Positions 10,514 through 18,405 of a stretch of DNA of 39,639 nucleotides are shown one piece after another (position 1 is the stretch's first letter; the number at the start of each line of letters is the position of its first letter). This stretch comes from a virus. Both the position numbers and the translations under genes were made by a program. Under the pieces are notes generated by a model. It was not told the DNA's origin and ran no database searches. It was given only the letters and a program-made list of their open reading frames with translations. The stretch is from IMG/VR virus record IMGVR_UViG_3300048918_000150, positions 1-39,639 of that record. One strand, 5' to 3'.

Positions 10514-11305
10514 ATGGCCTCACTCATTGTTCCGAAGCGATCTCTGATCCTGCCGCGAGGATCGCGTGGTGGACTCGTGCTGTCGCAACATCAGCGCGGC
10601 TTCATGATGATCAACCCGTCTCGCTTCGGGGCAAGCGGGGGCAGCGATCCCTACTTCTCCAGCGTCGTCTCGCTCCTGCATTTCGACGGCAGCAACGGCG
10701 GCACGACCTTCACTGACCAGAAGGGCAAGACCTGGACCGGGCACGGCACGGCACAGACGCAGACCACGACGTTCAAGTACGGCACGGCCGGCCTCAACCT
10801 CAGCCAGCCGAACGACTACCTCGACACCTCCAGCCATGCCGACTTCGGTTTCGGGACGGGCGATTACACACTGGAGTGCTGGGCGCGTGCGACCAACACC
10901 GCGGGACGCGTCAACGGCCTCATCGACACCCGCACTGCGAGCAATACGGGCATTCAATTGTTCATGGGTGGCGGTGCGTTCGGCGTGCCGACCAACACAA
11001 TGGGCTGCTCCAGCAACGCTGCCGTGTTGGCGACGGGCGGCACGGTCATCAGCGGCAACTGGTATCACATCGCCCTGTGTCGCGCCTCGGGAACCATCTA
11101 CGCCTTCGTCAACGGCGTGCAGGCGTTCACCGTGGCCGATTCACGCACCTATGCCTCAGCGTCCACCTGCTTCATCGGGGCCGACTACGCCGGCACGACG
11201 GGCCAACGGTTCGACGGCCAGATCGACGACCTGCGCATCACCAAGAGTGTCGCGCGCTACACCAGCGCCTTTACCCCGCCGACGGCCGCGTTCCCGGATA
11301 GCTAA
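10514..11305 (+). CDS. LamG/concanavalin-like tail adhesin
   Basis: This 263-residue protein starts directly after the previous stop. From about residue 50 it has the pattern of a laminin-G/ConA-like lectin fold: VVSLLHFDGSNGGTTFTD, then FGTGDYTLECWARA, then GNWYHIALCRASGTIYAFVNG, ending RFDGQIDDLRITKSVARY. Phages use this module at fibre tips to bind surface sugars. The first ~45 residues are basic and Gly-rich and may attach it to the tail. Its stop overlaps, by 4 bases, the stop of the convergent acyltransferase gene. Confidence 0.65.
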   Translation: MASLIVPKRSLILPRGSRGGLVLSQHQRGFMMINPSRFGASGGSDPYFSSVVSLLHFDGSNGGTTFTDQKGKTWTGHGTAQTQTTTFKYGTAGLNLSQPNDYLDTSSHADFGFGTGDYTLECWARATNTAGRVNGLIDTRTASNTGIQLFMGGGAFGVPTNTMGCSSNAAVLATGGTVISGNWYHIALCRASGTIYAFVNGVQAFTVADSRTYASASTCFIGADYAGTTGQRFDGQIDDLRITKSVARYTSAFTPPTAAFPDS

Positions 11306-13056
11306 CGGAAGTGCCGCGCGGCCGACGCGCTGATGTGGTTCGTGTCCCAATACAGCGAGTACCCGTCGCGCATCATTGGGCAGACGGTCGCGGTGCAGAA
11401 AAAGTCCGCCGGGTCGATGTAGACGACGTTGGAATATTTGCGCGCCTGAGCTTGCAGAAACGCGCGAGGTACGGCGGCTTCTCGGTCGAAGGTATCCCGC
11501 GCCATCGCGCACGCGTGCATCGCCCACTCCTGGAGGCACTTTTGCGGCGTGTACGGCATCACCGGCAGCGGCCCCATCACGATGATCCGCTCCACATGCG
11601 GGGCGAGCGCGGCGAGCGCGGAAGCCACCCCGTTTCGCACGCGCTCCGACATGCCGGGTTCCCCAAAGCGACGTAACCAATAGCCGCCTAGCAGCACAAC
11701 GCGCCCGCGCTTAGCGCGTTCGACGGCGATGGCGTTGAACTGGTCGCACAAGTCCCCGTGTGGATCGCCAGCGGACGGCTCGCAGCCCTCGCGCGTCAGC
11801 GGGTAGACCGTCCCGAAACGCGCGGCATAGGGCTGCCAGGCGTAGGCGTGCGAGTCGCCCCACACGATGACGTCACCGTTTCCGCACGAGGCAGGGGGCA
11901 GCGCCGCTGGCGCGTCCGCGTGCGCATTGCATTCCTGATTGGCCGGGAAATCCTGCGCCGTGCGAGCCGACAGCGATCCGCCCGACTGGGCGTGCGCGTT
12001 CACCGCGCCAGCTGCCGTCGCCATAACCAGACAGGTCGCCACGCCGACCGTGATCGCCTTCGGCTTGTGCAGCGCCCTCCGGCGCAGCGGCGTCTCGACG
12101 TAGCGGTAGGACAGCGTCGCGAGCACCACGGCCACAAGGCACAGCGCGAGGTTCAGGGGCAGCGGAGGGGCGTCGAGGAGACGGGACCGCAGCAGCGCCA
12201 GCAGCGGCCAATGCCACAGGTAGAGGCTGTAGGAGATGAGGCCGACCCCACGCAGCGGCGAGAACTCCAACGCGCGCACCCGCAGCCCTCCATGCACCGC
12301 CAATAGCACCAGCGCCGCACCGGCGACCGCAGGCAGCGCCCCGACGCCAGGGAAGGTGACGGGAAGCTGCACTAGTACGGCGCACATCAACAGGGCCATC
12401 CCCATCGGGGCGGCCCAGCGGCGCGGGCATTCTGGCGAGAGGGCAATCAACCCGCCAATCGCCAGTTCCCAAAAGCGCGGTGGCATTTGGTAGAACTCCG
12501 CCGACGGCGACACCGTGCCGAGCCATTGCGCCAGCACGAACGAGGCGGCGGCCAAGAAGGCGAGCGCGCGCGACGCATGACGCGTGCGGAGCAGCCACGC
12601 CAGCAGCAGCGGCCACACGAGGTAGAACTGCTCCTCGACCCCGAGCGACCAGAGGTGCAGCAACGGCATCTGGTTCGACGCACTGTCGAAGTAGCCGCCC
12701 GAGGCGGACTGGAAATAGACGTTCGCCACCATCCCCATCGCCGCCATTGCCGAGCGCGCCACGGCGGCCTGGTAGTCGGGCACGAGCAGGATCATCGACG
12801 CGGCGACGGTCGCCACCACGACGACAACGAGCGCGGGCAGGATGCGGCGCACGCGGCGCGCGTAGAAGGCAGCGAAGTCGATCCGGCCCGTCTGCGCATG
12901 CTCGGTCGCGAGCATCCGGGTGATGACGTAGCCCGAGATTACGAAGAACACGTCGACGCCGACGAAGCCGGCAGGGACCGGAAGGCCAGCGTGATACGCG
13001 ACGACCGCGAGCACGGCAATCGCGCGGAGGCCGTCAATGGCCGGTAGGTGCTTCAT
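11302..13056 (-). CDS. Membrane acyltransferase with SGNH domain (O-antigen acetylase type)
   Basis: This 584-residue protein is of the OafA/Oac class. The N-terminal ~350 residues are the acyltransferase-3 membrane domain, with DGLRA at 8-12, H22 in AYHAG, GFVGVDVFFVISGY, an R/ARRVRRILPAL motif and about ten membrane segments. The C-terminal ~230 residues form a periplasmic SGNH domain with a GDSH serine motif and a terminal D571-x-x-H574 pair. Such enzymes move acetyl groups across the inner membrane and onto O-antigen sugars. Phage-borne copies change serotype and block adsorption of related phages. It is read leftward, opposite to the fibres, and adjoins attP, a typical site for lysogenic conversion genes. 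The exact sugar target cannot be told. Confidence 0.88.
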   Translation of the reverse strand: MKHLPAIDGLRAIAVLAVVAYHAGLPVPAGFVGVDVFFVISGYVITRMLATEHAQTGRIDFAAFYARRVRRILPALVVVVVATVAASMILLVPDYQAAVARSAMAAMGMVANVYFQSASGGYFDSASNQMPLLHLWSLGVEEQFYLVWPLLLAWLLRTRHASRALAFLAAASFVLAQWLGTVSPSAEFYQMPPRFWELAIGGLIALSPECPRRWAAPMGMALLMCAVLVQLPVTFPGVGALPAVAGAALVLLAVHGGLRVRALEFSPLRGVGLISYSLYLWHWPLLALLRSRLLDAPPLPLNLALCLVAVVLATLSYRYVETPLRRRALHKPKAITVGVATCLVMATAAGAVNAHAQSGGSLSARTAQDFPANQECNAHADAPAALPPASCGNGDVIVWGDSHAYAWQPYAARFGTVYPLTREGCEPSAGDPHGDLCDQFNAIAVERAKRGRVVLLGGYWLRRFGEPGMSERVRNGVASALAALAPHVERIIVMGPLPVMPYTPQKCLQEWAMHACAMARDTFDREAAVPRAFLQAQARKYSNVVYIDPADFFCTATVCPMMRDGYSLYWDTNHISASAARHFR

Positions 13057-13368: not shown

Positions 13369-14295
13369 TTAAGCCAACTTCCGCACCGCGTCGGCGAGGT
13401 GCGAGGGCAGCAGGTGGGCGTACCGCTTGGTGACGGCCGGGCTGCTATGGCCTAGGAACTCGCCGATGGTGTGCAGGGGCACGCCCGCCTGCGCCAGCCA
13501 TGACGCGCAGGTGTGGCGCAGGTCGTGCCAACGGCAGTCGATCCCCGTCTTTTCGCGCGCGGTCGCCCACGCCTCCCGGATCTGGCGATCCCCGATCTTC
13601 AATGGCAACGCTTCGGCGATGGCCTGCACCTTCGGGTGCAGCGGGACCATCTGCAGCGTTCGCGTCTTTCCACTGCGGTCCAGCCGCAGAAACTCCCCTT
13701 GCACGTCATGCCGGGTCAGCCGGAGCAGGTGCCCGCGCCGGATGCCCGTATACGCCGCCAGGCGCACGTAGGAGGCTGCCGCGGGCTCAGGGCACGCCTT
13801 GGCTAGCGCCTCGACCTCGGCGAGCGTCAGAAAGCGTTCCCGCGGCGATTCGGGCAGCAGGGCAATCGCGGCCGGGCGATCCAGCCAGCCCCATTCCCGC
13901 CACGCCGCGCGCGTGATCTGCCGAAGGATGCGGCCCTTGTGATTCACGGTGGCCGGTGCCTTGTCGATCTCGGCTTCCTTGATCTCGGACCACACGGTGC
14001 CGACCTCCGTCAGCTTGCGCCCGTGGATGTACGGGAGCAGGGCGCGGACGTGGTTGCGGGTCTGCCGCGCCGACCGCAGGCGGGGGACGTGTCCGGTGAG
14101 CCAGCGTTCCAGCGCATCGGCGATCAGTCGCTCTGGCTGCCGACCAGCCGCAGCGTCCCGGACCTTGGCGAGCCACGCGCGTTCGAAGGCTTTGGCGTCG
14201 GCGAACGTCCAGTGGCGAGAAGTCTTGCGATACGTTCGTCCGCCGTAGCAGACGGTGACTTGATAGCTTCCGTTATCTCGCTTGGCGACGGGCAT
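13369..14295 (-). CDS. int: Tyrosine-recombinase integrase
   Basis: This 308-residue integrase inserts and excises phage DNA at attP. All catalytic residues are visible: R186 in YTGIRRGHLL, K210 in the beta-hairpin, H257-x-x-R260 in HDLRH, H283 in LGHSS and the nucleophile Y292 in KRYAHL. Residues 1-60 form a short arm-binding domain (NGSYQVTV, GRTYRKTS), and residues about 60-150 form the core-binding SAM-like domain. ATG 14295 is chosen because the protein then begins with MPVAKRDNGSYQV, a typical integrase N-terminus; further upstream the frame is Arg/Pro-rich nonsense overlapping the excisionase-like gene. It is the last gene of the leftward operon and ends at the attP arm sites. Confidence 0.95.
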   Translation of the reverse strand: MPVAKRDNGSYQVTVCYGGRTYRKTSRHWTFADAKAFERAWLAKVRDAAAGRQPERLIADALERWLTGHVPRLRSARQTRNHVRALLPYIHGRKLTEVGTVWSEIKEAEIDKAPATVNHKGRILRQITRAAWREWGWLDRPAAIALLPESPRERFLTLAEVEALAKACPEPAAASYVRLAAYTGIRRGHLLRLTRHDVQGEFLRLDRSGKTRTLQMVPLHPKVQAIAEALPLKIGDRQIREAWATAREKTGIDCRWHDLRHTCASWLAQAGVPLHTIGEFLGHSSPAVTKRYAHLLPSHLADAVRKLA

Positions 14296-14486
14296 TGCTG
14301 GCGTACCTTGCGGCGCGCCCAAAAGGCGGCCAGGTCGGCGGGGTGGATGCGGTCGGACTTCGCGCTGGAGCCTACGCGGGTCACGGCGAGGTCGCCAGCG
14401 GCAATGGCTCGGCGCAGGGTCTTGGTCGAGCATTCGCACCGCTCGGCCGCCTGCGCGACGGTCAAAAGGCGTTCTGCTGCGCTCAT
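14124..14486 (-). CDS. Excisionase-like helix-turn-helix protein
   Basis: This 120-residue protein has residues 6-65 (LLTVAQAAERCECSTKTLRRAI, then RIHPADLAAFW) that match the MerR/HTH_17 excisionase-type winged helix fold. Such proteins bend attachment-site DNA and steer the integrase towards excision. The remaining ~55 residues are Ser/Pro-rich and are encoded in the 172 bases that overlap the start of int, so they may be less constrained. Gene order (xis directly before int, same strand) supports the call. Confidence 0.7.
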   Translation of the reverse strand: MSAAERLLTVAQAAERCECSTKTLRRAIAAGDLAVTRVGSSAKSDRIHPADLAAFWARRKVRQQCPSPSEITEAIKSPSATADERIARLLATGRSPTPKPSNARGSPRSGTLRLVGSQSD

Positions 14487-15912: not shown

Positions 15913-16039
15913 GGCGATGTCTCTTGTCAGTGCAGGACCCGAACGGGTGGTCGGAATCCACATGGCGGGCATCGCCCGCGGCAGAGGTCGCCACGAGCAG
16001 ACAAATCACAATCACCACAAGGAAGATGCACACGATCAC
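15905..16039 (-). CDS. 44-residue membrane or secreted peptide
   Basis: A 44-residue frame runs from GTG 16039 to TGA 15905. The N-terminus is a hydrophobic helix (IVCIFLVVIVICLLVATSAAG) that could be a membrane anchor or a signal peptide cut after SAA. The tail is polar and His/Asp-rich. Its GTG overlaps the stop of the previous gene and its own stop overlaps the next ATG, so it fills exactly the gap between two genes. This supports real translation. The function is unknown. Confidence 0.55.
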   Translation of the reverse strand: MIVCIFLVVIVICLLVATSAAGDARHVDSDHPFGSCTDKRHRHD

Positions 16040-16740
16040 TTGCCTTCCCCCTGGTCCTGCGCGGCGGGGGCGGCTGCGATTTCGTCAGGAATGGCGCGAA
16101 TGCGGTCACTGAGCGCCTGCATTTGCTTGTGAACGTGCGGCGAGTGGAATACGAAACTCACTCCGTCCTCGCGCTTGAACGCCGGCGGGTACAGCAGCGC
16201 ATGAATACCTGTAAGCACCTTGACCGCATGGTCATAGCTGGCCCGCGCCACATCGCGCTCGTGTCGCAAGACTGTCGCCGCATCCACCCCGCCCCCGCTC
16301 GGCCCGCTGGCGAGGGCGGCTTCAATGCGGTTTGCAATGGCGCTCAATGGGCGGCCAATGAGCGCGTTGTCTTTCGGCTTGCGCGCCTCCCCGCCCTGCA
16401 CCTGCGGGCTGGCATAGGCCATTGCGCGATGCCACCAGCCTCGCCAGTAGATCGTCCAATCGCGCGATCCAATGGGCGCGCTGGCATAGTCGAATGCCGT
16501 CAGGGTGTACGCCTGCTCCGCATCGTGGCGCTCGTCGTGAACAAGCGGCGGCGTTCCAAAGCCTGTCACGTCCACTGCATCACCCTCCGGCGCGGCCTGC
16601 GGGCTGGCGGTGAGGGCGGCAATGGCGTTGGCCCACGAGTCGATAATGCGCTTGCCGTGCATCCCCGACAGGCCGTGGTCGGCGACCTTGTCAGCGGCGT
16701 TGCGCATGTCCTCGATGATTGTTTCCAGTTCCCTGCTCAT
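16036..16740 (-). CDS. Unknown mosaic early protein directly downstream of tnpB
   Basis: This 234-residue protein begins MSRELETIIEDMRNAADKVADHGLSG with a helical start, followed by Ala/Pro-rich linkers, a Trp-rich middle (DWTIYWRGWWHRAM) and a helical C-terminus (ALSDRIRAIPDEI). The linker-joined modular look recalls Ea22-like proteins that are spliced together by recombination. Its ATG overlaps the tnpB stop (ATGA at 16737-16740), so the two are coupled. If TnpB uses an omega RNA, the RNA and guide would run into the start of this gene. Confidence 0.5.
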   Translation of the reverse strand: MSRELETIIEDMRNAADKVADHGLSGMHGKRIIDSWANAIAALTASPQAAPEGDAVDVTGFGTPPLVHDERHDAEQAYTLTAFDYASAPIGSRDWTIYWRGWWHRAMAYASPQVQGGEARKPKDNALIGRPLSAIANRIEAALASGPSGGGVDAATVLRHERDVARASYDHAVKVLTGIHALLYPPAFKREDGVSFVFHSPHVHKQMQALSDRIRAIPDEIAAAPAAQDQGEGK

Positions 16741-17900
16741 CGGCTTGCCTCTTTGTGTGAATGCGCAACGTGGGCCGCCTGCCGGCTGTCATGCCAACGC
16801 CCACAGGGCGTCAACTCGTTCCCGCTAACGGAGGTCATCAGCCTTGACCCGAGCGTGGCGATGTTCCGCGCGGCGTTTACGTCGCGGTCGTGCTCGGCCC
16901 CACACGCCGAGCAACACCAGGCTCTTACAGCGAGACCTGTCCGGCCTGCTGGCCCCGTGAGAGACCCACAGCCGCTGCAAGCCCGTGTTGTGTTGCGCTC
17001 GTTGACGATTTCCACGCGCCTGCCGGCCTGCTGGCCCTTGTAGAGCAGTTGCGTGCGGAGGATTCCCCAGCCGGAGTCGTGAACGGCCTTGCCCATTCTT
17101 CCCATGCCGGCCATGCGGGGACTGCTCACGTCGCCAACGACGATTACCTCGTACCGATCCACCAGCTTCCTGCTGAACTTGTGCAGGGCGTCCTCGCGCT
17201 GCCGTGCCGCCTTGCGGTGCAGGCGCTTGGCCTGCCTCTTGTGGCCGCGACGCTGGGCCTGTGCGATGCGCGCCTCGGCATCGCGAAAGAACCTGCCCGC
17301 GCCCAGGCGGTCGCCGTCACTGGTCGTGGCGATGTCCTTCAGGCCAAGGTCGACGCCCACGATGGGGCGAGCGGCAGGCTTGGCTTCCTCGACAGCGGTT
17401 GCGACCGAAACGCAGAACCACCAATCGCCCACCGCGTCCTGCGCGAAGCAGCCGCCCTTGAGCGCCATCCCGTCGAGCGCCCCGACATCAAAGAGGCGGA
17501 AGGTCTTGCTGTAGAAGCGGACGGCATTGCCTTTCCGCTTGATGCAGGCCCCCTTGAAGGGCACCCACCCCAAAGAGCGATGGGAGCCGAAAGAACGGCG
17601 CCACCGGAGCTGAGTCCGCCTCGCCACGCGGCGCTTAACTGCGTACTCCTGACAGACGCCCTGAATGGTGTCGGAGCCGATGCAGTCGAAAAACTGGGAA
17701 CTGCCGGCGGAAAGGCCGCCAAGGTCATACCCAGTCAGGAACCGGGGCGCGCCAGCGAAGCGAGCAATTGCCTTACCGCTGACCTCGTTAGCCCAGTTCC
17801 AGACCTGGTTGACCTCCACGGCGGCCCTGTTCAGCCACGCATAGGCTTCCGGCTTCACCTTGAGCCTGACAGTTTTCCGAAGCTCGGCCTTCCCACTCAT
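16737..17900 (-). CDS. tnpB: TnpB-like RNA-guided nuclease homologue with altered RuvC-II site
   Basis: This 387-residue protein is full length for TnpB. The N-terminal ~175 residues are the wedge/recognition part. RuvC-I is VGVDLGLKDIA with D184. RuvC-II reads VIVVGDVSS, so the usual glutamate of the E-D-L motif is glycine (G256). E301 lies in VNERNTT just before the zinc ribbon (C308, C311, C330, C333). RuvC-III is HDRDVNAARNI with D340. TnpB proteins of IS200/IS605 and IS607 elements cut DNA with a guide RNA made from the transposon end. Here no TnpA is nearby, and both ends overlap phage genes by ATGA (17897-17900 and 16737-16740), leaving no room for element ends outside the gene. It may be active with a relocated glutamate, or be a nuclease-dead regulator. 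Confidence 0.88.
   Translation of the reverse strand: MSGKAELRKTVRLKVKPEAYAWLNRAAVEVNQVWNWANEVSGKAIARFAGAPRFLTGYDLGGLSAGSSQFFDCIGSDTIQGVCQEYAVKRRVARRTQLRWRRSFGSHRSLGWVPFKGACIKRKGNAVRFYSKTFRLFDVGALDGMALKGGCFAQDAVGDWWFCVSVATAVEEAKPAARPIVGVDLGLKDIATTSDGDRLGAGRFFRDAEARIAQAQRRGHKRQAKRLHRKAARQREDALHKFSRKLVDRYEVIVVGDVSSPRMAGMGRMGKAVHDSGWGILRTQLLYKGQQAGRRVEIVNERNTTRACSGCGSLTGPAGRTGLAVRAWCCSACGAEHDRDVNAARNIATLGSRLMTSVSGNELTPCGRWHDSRQAAHVAHSHKEASR
16797..16811 (-). ncRNA. Hairpin at the tnpB 3' end, possible omega RNA element
   Basis: ACGCCC and GGGCGT form a stem around a 3-base loop, inside the last ~75 bases of tnpB. In characterised TnpB systems the omega RNA scaffold overlaps the 3' end of tnpB and ends with a structured element before the guide. 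The hairpin is seen in the sequence; its role is inference. The RNA boundaries cannot be set from sequence alone. Confidence 0.3.
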
Positions 17901-18169
17901 GGCGACTGCGGCTCCTTGAGTCCTTTGACGTTTCCGAGGTGGCCGTTGGCTTGCTCAAGCTGCCGGCGGATGTCGTTGACCCTCGCCTCAGCCTCTACGA
18001 GCAGCGCGTCTTTCGCCTCCTGCCATGTCGGGTGGTAGTTCCGATATTTATTGCGCTTGGCGGTTCTGCAACCATTAATCCAGACGCAGAGATCAGACGC
18101 CTTCTCGACGGTTACAGGCACGATTAGTCCGCCCCTCCACGCCCCAGTCATGAACCATGTTTCGCTCAC
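17897..18169 (-). CDS. Unknown early protein directly upstream of tnpB
   Basis: This 90-residue protein begins MSETWFMTGAWRGGLIVPVTVEKASDLCVW and ends in a helical, charged segment (AKDALLVEAEARVNDIRRQLEQANGH). The first half is beta-like and the second may be a short coiled coil. Its ATG overlaps the previous stop and its stop overlaps the tnpB start (ATGA), so tnpB depends on this gene for translation coupling. No known family. Confidence 0.5.
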   Translation of the reverse strand: MSETWFMTGAWRGGLIVPVTVEKASDLCVWINGCRTAKRNKYRNYHPTWQEAKDALLVEAEARVNDIRRQLEQANGHLGNVKGLKEPQSP

Positions 18170-18405
18170 TGTTGCGGCTCCTTGAGGTTGGCGGAGGTGG
18201 CGAGGGCGGCGAGTAGGGCGTCGGCGTGCTTCACGGCAATCAGTGAGCGGCGATCCGGTTGCATGGGCTCTCCGTTCGCCAGCATCGACTGCATCGCCAT
18301 CGCCGCGAACAGCTCGCGCTTGGTGAGGCCGCGTTGGTCGAACGCCGTGCTGTTGCCGGCCTCAATCGGGAATGCGGCTGTCTGCGGCTTCTCATTGCGC
18401 TCCAT
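18166..18405 (-). CDS. Small conserved-looking prophage protein
   Basis: This 79-residue protein has at its centre GLTKRELFAAMAMQSMLANG, a motif common in small prophage proteins (often G-[ML]-T-x-R-[DE]-x-F-A-x-x-A-M-x-G). It is followed by a helical end (AVKHADALLAALA). The function of this group is not known to me. The stop overlaps the following gene by ATGA. Confidence 0.6.
   Translation of the reverse strand: MERNEKPQTAAFPIEAGNSTAFDQRGLTKRELFAAMAMQSMLANGEPMQPDRRSLIAVKHADALLAALATSANLKEPQQ

What the first reader, a model, noticed from the sequence alone, without database searches (positions are those of the whole stretch)
17115..17150. RuvC-II glutamate missing in TnpB, possible relocated active site
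The RuvC-II motif reads VVGDVSS where typical TnpB has V(V/I)EDL, so the expected catalytic glutamate is G256. RuvC-I D184 and RuvC-III D340 are intact. A glutamate at E301 (VNERNTT), directly before the zinc ribbon, is in a place where, as I recall, some TnpB groups have a relocated catalytic glutamate. The protein is either an alternative-site nuclease or a dead RNA-guided DNA binder. The two cases predict very different biology.
Basis: partly seen in the sequence, partly recalled or inferred. Interest (0 to 1): 0.75.

Follow-up and report, generated by a model that had tools for sequence, protein, structure and literature searches.

The report
Phage TnpB with relocated catalytic glutamate
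A temperate phage carries a small RNA-guided DNA-cutting protein (TnpB) whose catalytic glutamate sits at a second, already described position, together with a matching guide-RNA scaffold, so it is most likely a working nuclease of a known type and not a dead one.

Summary
The 387-aa TnpB (16737-17900, minus strand) has G256 where canonical TnpB has its RuvC-II glutamate, with D184, E301 and D340 present. In 133 of 133 relatives with a residue at that column, E301 is invariant. G256 is invariant in 134 of 134, and D257 is not conserved. E301 stands exactly seven residues before the first zinc-ribbon cysteine (ExxxxxxC), the 'Ealt' signature published by Yoon et al. 2023. A confident AlphaFold model (pLDDT 90) puts it just after strand beta-5, where Fanzor nucleases carry their catalytic glutamate. 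The 3' end of the gene overlaps an RNA scaffold: hairpin 1 pairs in all 25 loci compared through compensatory changes, and its loop forms a 5-bp pseudoknot with the predicted scaffold end (CAGCC). Close relatives are discrete ~1.24-kb insertions in other phages, shown by two comparisons with unoccupied sites. More distant ones are multi-copy IS200/IS605 elements. I conclude that it is an alternative-site RNA-guided nuclease with its own omega RNA, carried by a temperate P22-like phage and probably acting as a retention or homing element. The relocated active site is known; this is a new member of a known kind. Cleavage and catalytic distances were not measured.

The parts
16737..17900 (-). tnpB ORF, 387 aa, Ealt type with DLG (D-hydrophobic-G) RuvC-I
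   Evidence: NF040570 guided_TnpB 184 bits (cut-off 100), PF07282, PF01385; fold match to ISDra2 TnpB Z 25.9
17349..17351 (-). RuvC-I catalytic aspartate D184
   Evidence: invariant 134/134, but partly selected by the search patterns
17121..17141 (-). degenerate RuvC-II motif VVGDVSS; G256 at 17133-17135 replaces the canonical glutamate
   Evidence: G256 invariant 134/134; D257 varies
16998..17000 (-). E301, relocated (Ealt) catalytic glutamate, 7 residues before the first zinc-ribbon Cys
   Evidence: invariant 133/133; register as in PMC10711439
16902..16979 (-). zinc ribbon C308/C311/C330/C333
   Evidence: C308, C311 and C333 invariant, C330 in 132/133; PF07282 residues 278-347
16881..16883 (-). 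RuvC-III catalytic aspartate D340
   Evidence: invariant 133/133
16782..16850 (-). omega-RNA scaffold core (5' limit not defined), wholly inside the tnpB ORF; ends ...GGCATGACAGCCGG
   Evidence: homologous to ...GGCATGAGCACCGG of relatives; coordinates checked
16833..16849 (-). scaffold hairpin 1: GGTCA / loop AGGCTGA / TGACC
   Evidence: stem pairs in 25/25 loci; 0 of 2000 shuffles as good
16822..16831 (-). scaffold hairpin 2: CCG TTAG CGG
   Evidence: read; same form in relatives; not tested statistically
16796..16812 (-). scaffold hairpin 3: GACGCCC TGT GGGCGTT
16784..16788 (-). CAGCC, 3' strand of the pseudoknot, pairs with loop GGCTG (16839-16843)
   Evidence: covariation across 28 loci P = 0.0008 (Watson-Crick)
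16762..16781 (-). predicted guide CAGGCGGCCCACGTTGCGCA (start uncertain by 2 nt)
   Evidence: position set by homology of scaffold ends and by the unoccupied-site alignments of relatives; the overlapping 20-mer GGCAGGCGGCCCACGTTGCG has no other match with 3 or fewer mismatches in this record
17897..18169 (-). upstream 90-aa ORF, overlaps the tnpB start by 4 nt (ATGA) and carries AAGGAG as its likely ribosome site
   Evidence: one homolog L022 at 40%
16036..16740 (-). downstream 234-aa ORF, overlaps the tnpB stop by 4 nt (ATGA)
   Evidence: no family

Best explanation
The gene encodes a catalytically competent TnpB of the Ealt (D-hydrophobic-G) class. The RuvC carboxylate triad is D184, E301 and D340; the glutamate is supplied from the end of strand beta-5, beside the zinc ribbon, instead of the end of beta-4. 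The mRNA's 3' part contains an omega-RNA scaffold ending at 16782, and the following ~16-20 nt (16762-16781) serve as guide. The complex should cut DNA that carries the guide sequence next to the right motif, which for a mobile element is the same site without the insertion. In this temperate P22-like phage it therefore most likely acts as a retention or homing device against co-infecting or recombining phages that lack the insertion. Shown here: residue conservation and exclusivity, fold, scaffold covariation, discrete insertions in relatives. Inferred: cleavage, guide use, biological role.
For: E301 133/133, G256 134/134, D257 variable; strict either/or of canonical and alternative E. ExxxxxxC register identical to published Ealt. 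AlphaFold2 pLDDT 90.3; E301 is the first residue after strand 295-300, G256 lies at the end of strand 250-257, D184 at the end of 178-185, D340 near the start of helix 339-356. Best structural matches are ISDra2 TnpB (8exa, Z 25.9) and, among others, mimivirus Fanzor2 (9b0l, Z 24.3). In Fanzors the catalytic E lies between beta-5 and the TNB domain, and SpuFz1 D383/E541/D606 with two Mg2+ coordinate the scissile phosphate (PMC11423790). Scaffold hairpin 1: 125/125 pairs including GU against 92.7 in shuffles; pseudoknot P = 0.0008; the window forms GGCTG:CAGCC. Phage relatives are discrete insertions: L001 against L185 aligns 101/124 without gaps across the emptied junction; L112 against L217 has matching flanks of 82% and 76% identity. 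Vreelandella copies: near-identical Ealt right ends at different sites, in a genome with Y1 transposases.
Against: No biochemistry. No atomic distances measured. No unoccupied site or target was found for this window's own guide, and the left element end seen in several relatives is absent here, so this copy may be immobile or co-opted. The scaffold and guide lie wholly inside the tnpB ORF.
Confidence: 0.85

Rival explanations
1. Nuclease-dead RNA-guided DNA binder or repressor (TldR-like): loss of the RuvC-II glutamate abolished cutting, and the protein is kept for RNA-guided binding to a promoter or operator.
For: Canonical E is absent. The copy sits in a phage operon with 4-nt overlaps on both sides and no left element end, like a co-opted gene. 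Phage-encoded TldRs exist (PMC13418256).
Against: TldRs are defined by RuvC inactivation, whereas here D184, E301 and D340 are all kept and E301 is invariant in mobile relatives. The loss of the canonical E is clade-wide and always accompanied by E301.
Confidence: 0.07
2. Active nuclease co-opted by the phage for a task other than homing, for example cutting a competitor phage or plasmid, with the guide under selection.
For: Operon-embedded, own ribosome site, no transposase in the record, scaffold intact.
Against: An 18-nt stretch of the predicted guide region has no exact match in 2.9 million viral contigs. Relatives look like insertions in which the guide is simply the sequence next to the element.
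Confidence: 0.2
3. D257 (the aspartate next to G256) replaces the glutamate.
For: Acidic and adjacent to the canonical position.
Against: Asn in 24, Gly in 1, Lys in 1 of 134 relatives.
Confidence: 0.02
4. Decaying remnant without function.
For: Left end missing; one relative (L014) is frameshifted and L033 has an early stop.
Against: Full-length ORF, all motif residues intact, scaffold pairing intact and rebuilt by compensatory changes.
Confidence: 0.06

Closest known systems
Ealt TnpBs with D-hydrophobic-G RuvC-I (Yoon et al. 2023, NAR, PMC10711439)
   Same: Alternative glutamate six residues before the zinc-finger motif (ExxxxxxC), no canonical E, DLG at RuvC-I.
   Different: This copy is in a phage operon, with no transposase in the record and no recognisable left end.
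Fanzor (SpuFz1, mimivirus Fanzor2)
   Same: Same position of the catalytic glutamate, between beta-5 and the TNB domain; fold match Z 24.3 to 9b0l.
   Different: Fanzors have DPG at RuvC-I and are found in eukaryotes and their viruses; this one has DLG and is in a bacterial phage.
ISDra2 TnpB (IS200/IS605)
   Same: Whole fold (Z 25.9), overlap of omega RNA with the tnpB 3' end.
   Different: Canonical glutamate in RuvC-II instead of E301.
TldR (TnpB-like nuclease-dead repressors) of temperate phages
   Same: TnpB relative in a temperate phage.
   Different: TldRs have mutated RuvC; here a complete triad is present.
TnpB of phage Gifsy-1 (GipA) and of mycobacteriophages
   Same: Phage-carried TnpB, 34-38% identity over the C-terminal part.
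   Different: They carry the canonical glutamate (VESL, VEDL) and no E at the alternative site.

Membership tests
Ealt TnpB (D-hydrophobic-G clade) | Glutamate six residues upstream of the zinc-finger motif (ExxxxxxC) | tested here: met
   E301-RNTTRA-C308; invariant in relatives
Ealt TnpB (D-hydrophobic-G clade) | No canonical RuvC-II glutamate | tested here: met
   G256, 134/134 in relatives
Ealt TnpB (D-hydrophobic-G clade) | D-hydrophobic-G at RuvC-I | tested here: met
   D184-L-G
Ealt TnpB (D-hydrophobic-G clade) | Placement in the Ealt D-hydrophobic-G clade of a reference tree | not tested
   No reference tree was built; placement rests on motifs and on 38-63% identity to Ealt relatives
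TnpB / OMEGA nuclease | TnpB fold and family profile | tested here: met
   NF040570 184 bits over cut-off 100; Z 25.9 to 8exa
TnpB / OMEGA nuclease | omega-RNA scaffold overlapping or following the tnpB 3' end with terminal pseudoknot | tested here: met
   by covariation only, no RNA data
TnpB / OMEGA nuclease | RNA-guided DNA cleavage | not testable with these tools
   needs an assay
Fanzor / pro-Fanzor | DPG at RuvC-I together with Ealt | tested here: not met
   RuvC-I is DLG
TldR | Inactivated RuvC catalytic residues | tested here: not met
   D184, E301, D340 all present
IS200/IS605 or IS607 insertion sequence (complete) | Y1 TnpA or serine recombinase in the element | tested here: not met
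   No PF01797 or PF00239 in this record or in 12 related phage contigs, several of which are fragments
IS200/IS605 or IS607 insertion sequence (complete) | Left end | tested here: not met
   GAAG-hairpin-GACCC left end of relatives not seen upstream of the window gene; read by eye

The most novel reading that the evidence does not exclude
Transposase-less Ealt tnpB elements in phages insert inside the start codon (AT|G) of a phage gene, and the 3' end of their omega-RNA scaffold (ATGAGCACCGG) restores an in-frame start codon, so the element stays translationally silent while its guide matches the unoccupied allele. The window copy would be a further step in which tnpB itself reads through scaffold and guide and is locked between two genes by ATGA overlaps.
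Probability: 0.35. Interest if true: 0.55.

Novelty: new member of a known kind. Interest (0 to 1): 0.33.

Why it matters
It settles, as far as sequence and a model can, that a missing RuvC-II glutamate in this TnpB group is a relocation and not an inactivation. That matters for anyone who sorts dead TnpBs (TldRs) from live ones by the canonical motif alone. It also adds a family of small (about 360-390 aa) phage-borne Ealt nucleases with defined scaffolds, and two clean unoccupied sites from which target motifs could be read.

Tried and rejected
Dead-repressor reading: rejected on invariance and exclusivity of E301. D257 as substitute: rejected, not conserved. First placement of the scaffold end at AAGCC|GATGAGC just before the downstream gene: dropped, because the homologous end GGCATGA-CAGCC follows the 'ATGA + 5' rule of the relatives and gives a longer pseudoknot. 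The pseudoknot test with hand-chosen ends was repeated with a rule-based end and without the two loci whose ends had been chosen by pairing: it stayed significant for pairs (P = 0.0008 Watson-Crick, 0.0097 with GU), but the count of fully paired loci did not for Watson-Crick pairs (P = 0.077) and was borderline with GU (P = 0.046). Rfam gave no hit. Single-strand folding energy of part of the window scaffold was only weakly better than shuffles (z -1.6), so I rely on covariation instead. Looking for the window's own unoccupied site through the neighbouring genes, by DNA similarity and through the guide found none. ISFba1 TnpB (PMC11061315) was checked as a possible Ealt enzyme; its D194/E290/D371 spacing looks canonical. 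Altae-Tran et al. 2023 (PNAS), which I recall as describing rearranged RuvC sites, is not held.

Full report
Observation. The ORF at 16737-17900 on the minus strand encodes a 387-residue TnpB.

Is the pattern more than chance? I collected relatives from viral contigs and bacterial genomes. Of 136 unique full-length sequences, those with a residue at the column show G256 in 134/134 and E301 in 133/133, while the residues around E301 vary; D257 is Asn, Gly or Lys in 26. A broader scoring that adds TnpBs from the same bacterial genomes and from other phages gives 150 with the alternative E and no canonical E, 9 with the canonical E and no alternative E, and none with both or neither. This is what a relocated catalytic residue predicts and not what decay predicts. 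The canonical set is small.

Structure. AlphaFold2 on a 90-sequence alignment gave mean pLDDT 90.3; only the last 30 residues are disordered. The matches are led by ISDra2 TnpB (Z 25.9), with mimivirus Fanzor2 close behind (Z 24.3). D184 ends strand 178-185, G256 lies at the end of strand 250-257 (the canonical glutamate position), E301 directly follows strand 295-300 and precedes the zinc ribbon, and D340 is near the start of helix 339-356. In Fanzors the catalytic glutamate is in the loop between beta-5 and the TNB domain, and in SpuFz1 D383, E541 and D606 with two Mg2+ coordinate the scissile phosphate (PMC11423790). Yoon et al. define Ealt as a glutamate six residues before the zinc finger and report a D-hydrophobic-G Ealt clade beside the DPG one that contains Fanzors (PMC10711439). 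The window protein has exactly this register and DLG.

Guide RNA. The right ends of about 30 close relatives share a scaffold that overlaps the tnpB 3' end and stops at GGCATGAGCACC(GG), after which the sequences diverge. Hairpin 1 pairs in all 25 loci compared through many compensatory changes (125/125 pairs including GU, shuffles 92.7). Its loop pairs with the last nucleotides of the scaffold; with a rule-based end the Watson-Crick pair count beats shuffled pairings at P = 0.0008. In the window the scaffold runs from about 16850 to 16782, with loop GGCTG and end CAGCC giving five base pairs, so both sides have changed relative to GGTG:CACC. The predicted guide is 16762-16781; the start is uncertain by two bases because GG after the scaffold is shared by most relatives. 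The scaffold and the guide lie inside the tnpB ORF here. A pseudoknot of this sort is required for activity in ISXfa1 (PMC10711439).

Mobility. L185 is an unoccupied counterpart of the site in L001 (L003, L104 and L106 hold the same insertion): removing a 1,247-bp element from L001 leaves a junction that aligns 101/124 without gaps to L185. L217 is the unoccupied counterpart of the site in L112 (1,236-bp element; flanks 82% and 76% identical). No Y1 transposase or serine recombinase was found in this record or in 12 related phage contigs, several of which are fragments. More distant Ealt relatives are multi-copy IS200/IS605-type elements, for example near-identical right ends at different sites in Vreelandella stevensii, with Y1 transposase genes in that genome.

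The window copy. It lies in the leftward early operon of a temperate phage with integrase, a YqaJ/RecE-like exonuclease, P22-like portal and O-antigen acetylase. It overlaps both neighbours by four nucleotides, has a plausible AAGGAG ribosome site inside the upstream gene, and lacks the left end seen in several relatives. Its guide region has no other match with three or fewer mismatches in the record, and 18 nt of it (from 16783) have no exact match in the viral collection. So this copy may no longer move.

Conclusion. The protein is best read as an active Ealt TnpB with its own omega RNA. A nuclease-dead binder is unlikely. Homing or retention is the default role by analogy with TnpB and by the insertions in relatives; co-option for another target is not excluded. 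The relocated glutamate is published, so the finding is a new member of a known kind.

Noticed in passing
L001:5900-7148 and L112:2905-4145 (compare L185, L184, L217): In both unoccupied-site comparisons the element sits inside the native start codon (AT|G), and its right end ATGAGCACCGG gives the interrupted gene a new in-frame start. In 19 viral loci, 8 of the 11 frames of 100 or more codons that run out of the element are in the frame of that ATG (binomial p 0.009, post hoc).
   Followed up: partly
L108, L027, L030, L112, L105 upstream of tnpB: Left end of the close relatives is GAAG, then a short hairpin rebuilt by compensatory changes (GAAAC..GTTTC, GCGGC..GCCGC, GCGAC..GTCGC), then GACCC; flanks mostly end in A-pyrimidine.
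   Followed up: partly
window 11302-13056 and 13369-14439: O-antigen acetylase gene beside the integrase, as in serotype-converting P22-like phages.
   Followed up: no
L110 and L119 (contig IMGVR_UViG_3300037515_000188): One phage contig carries two different tnpB elements of this group.
   Followed up: no
L020:2554-3684 (Gifsy-1): GipA, annotated as a Peyer's patch-specific virulence factor in one record and as a transposase in another, is a canonical-glutamate TnpB relative.
   Followed up: no
window 17897-18169 and 18166-18405: Two consecutive small ORFs end in near-identical LKEPQ tails that encode an AAGGAG ribosome site for the next gene.
   Followed up: no
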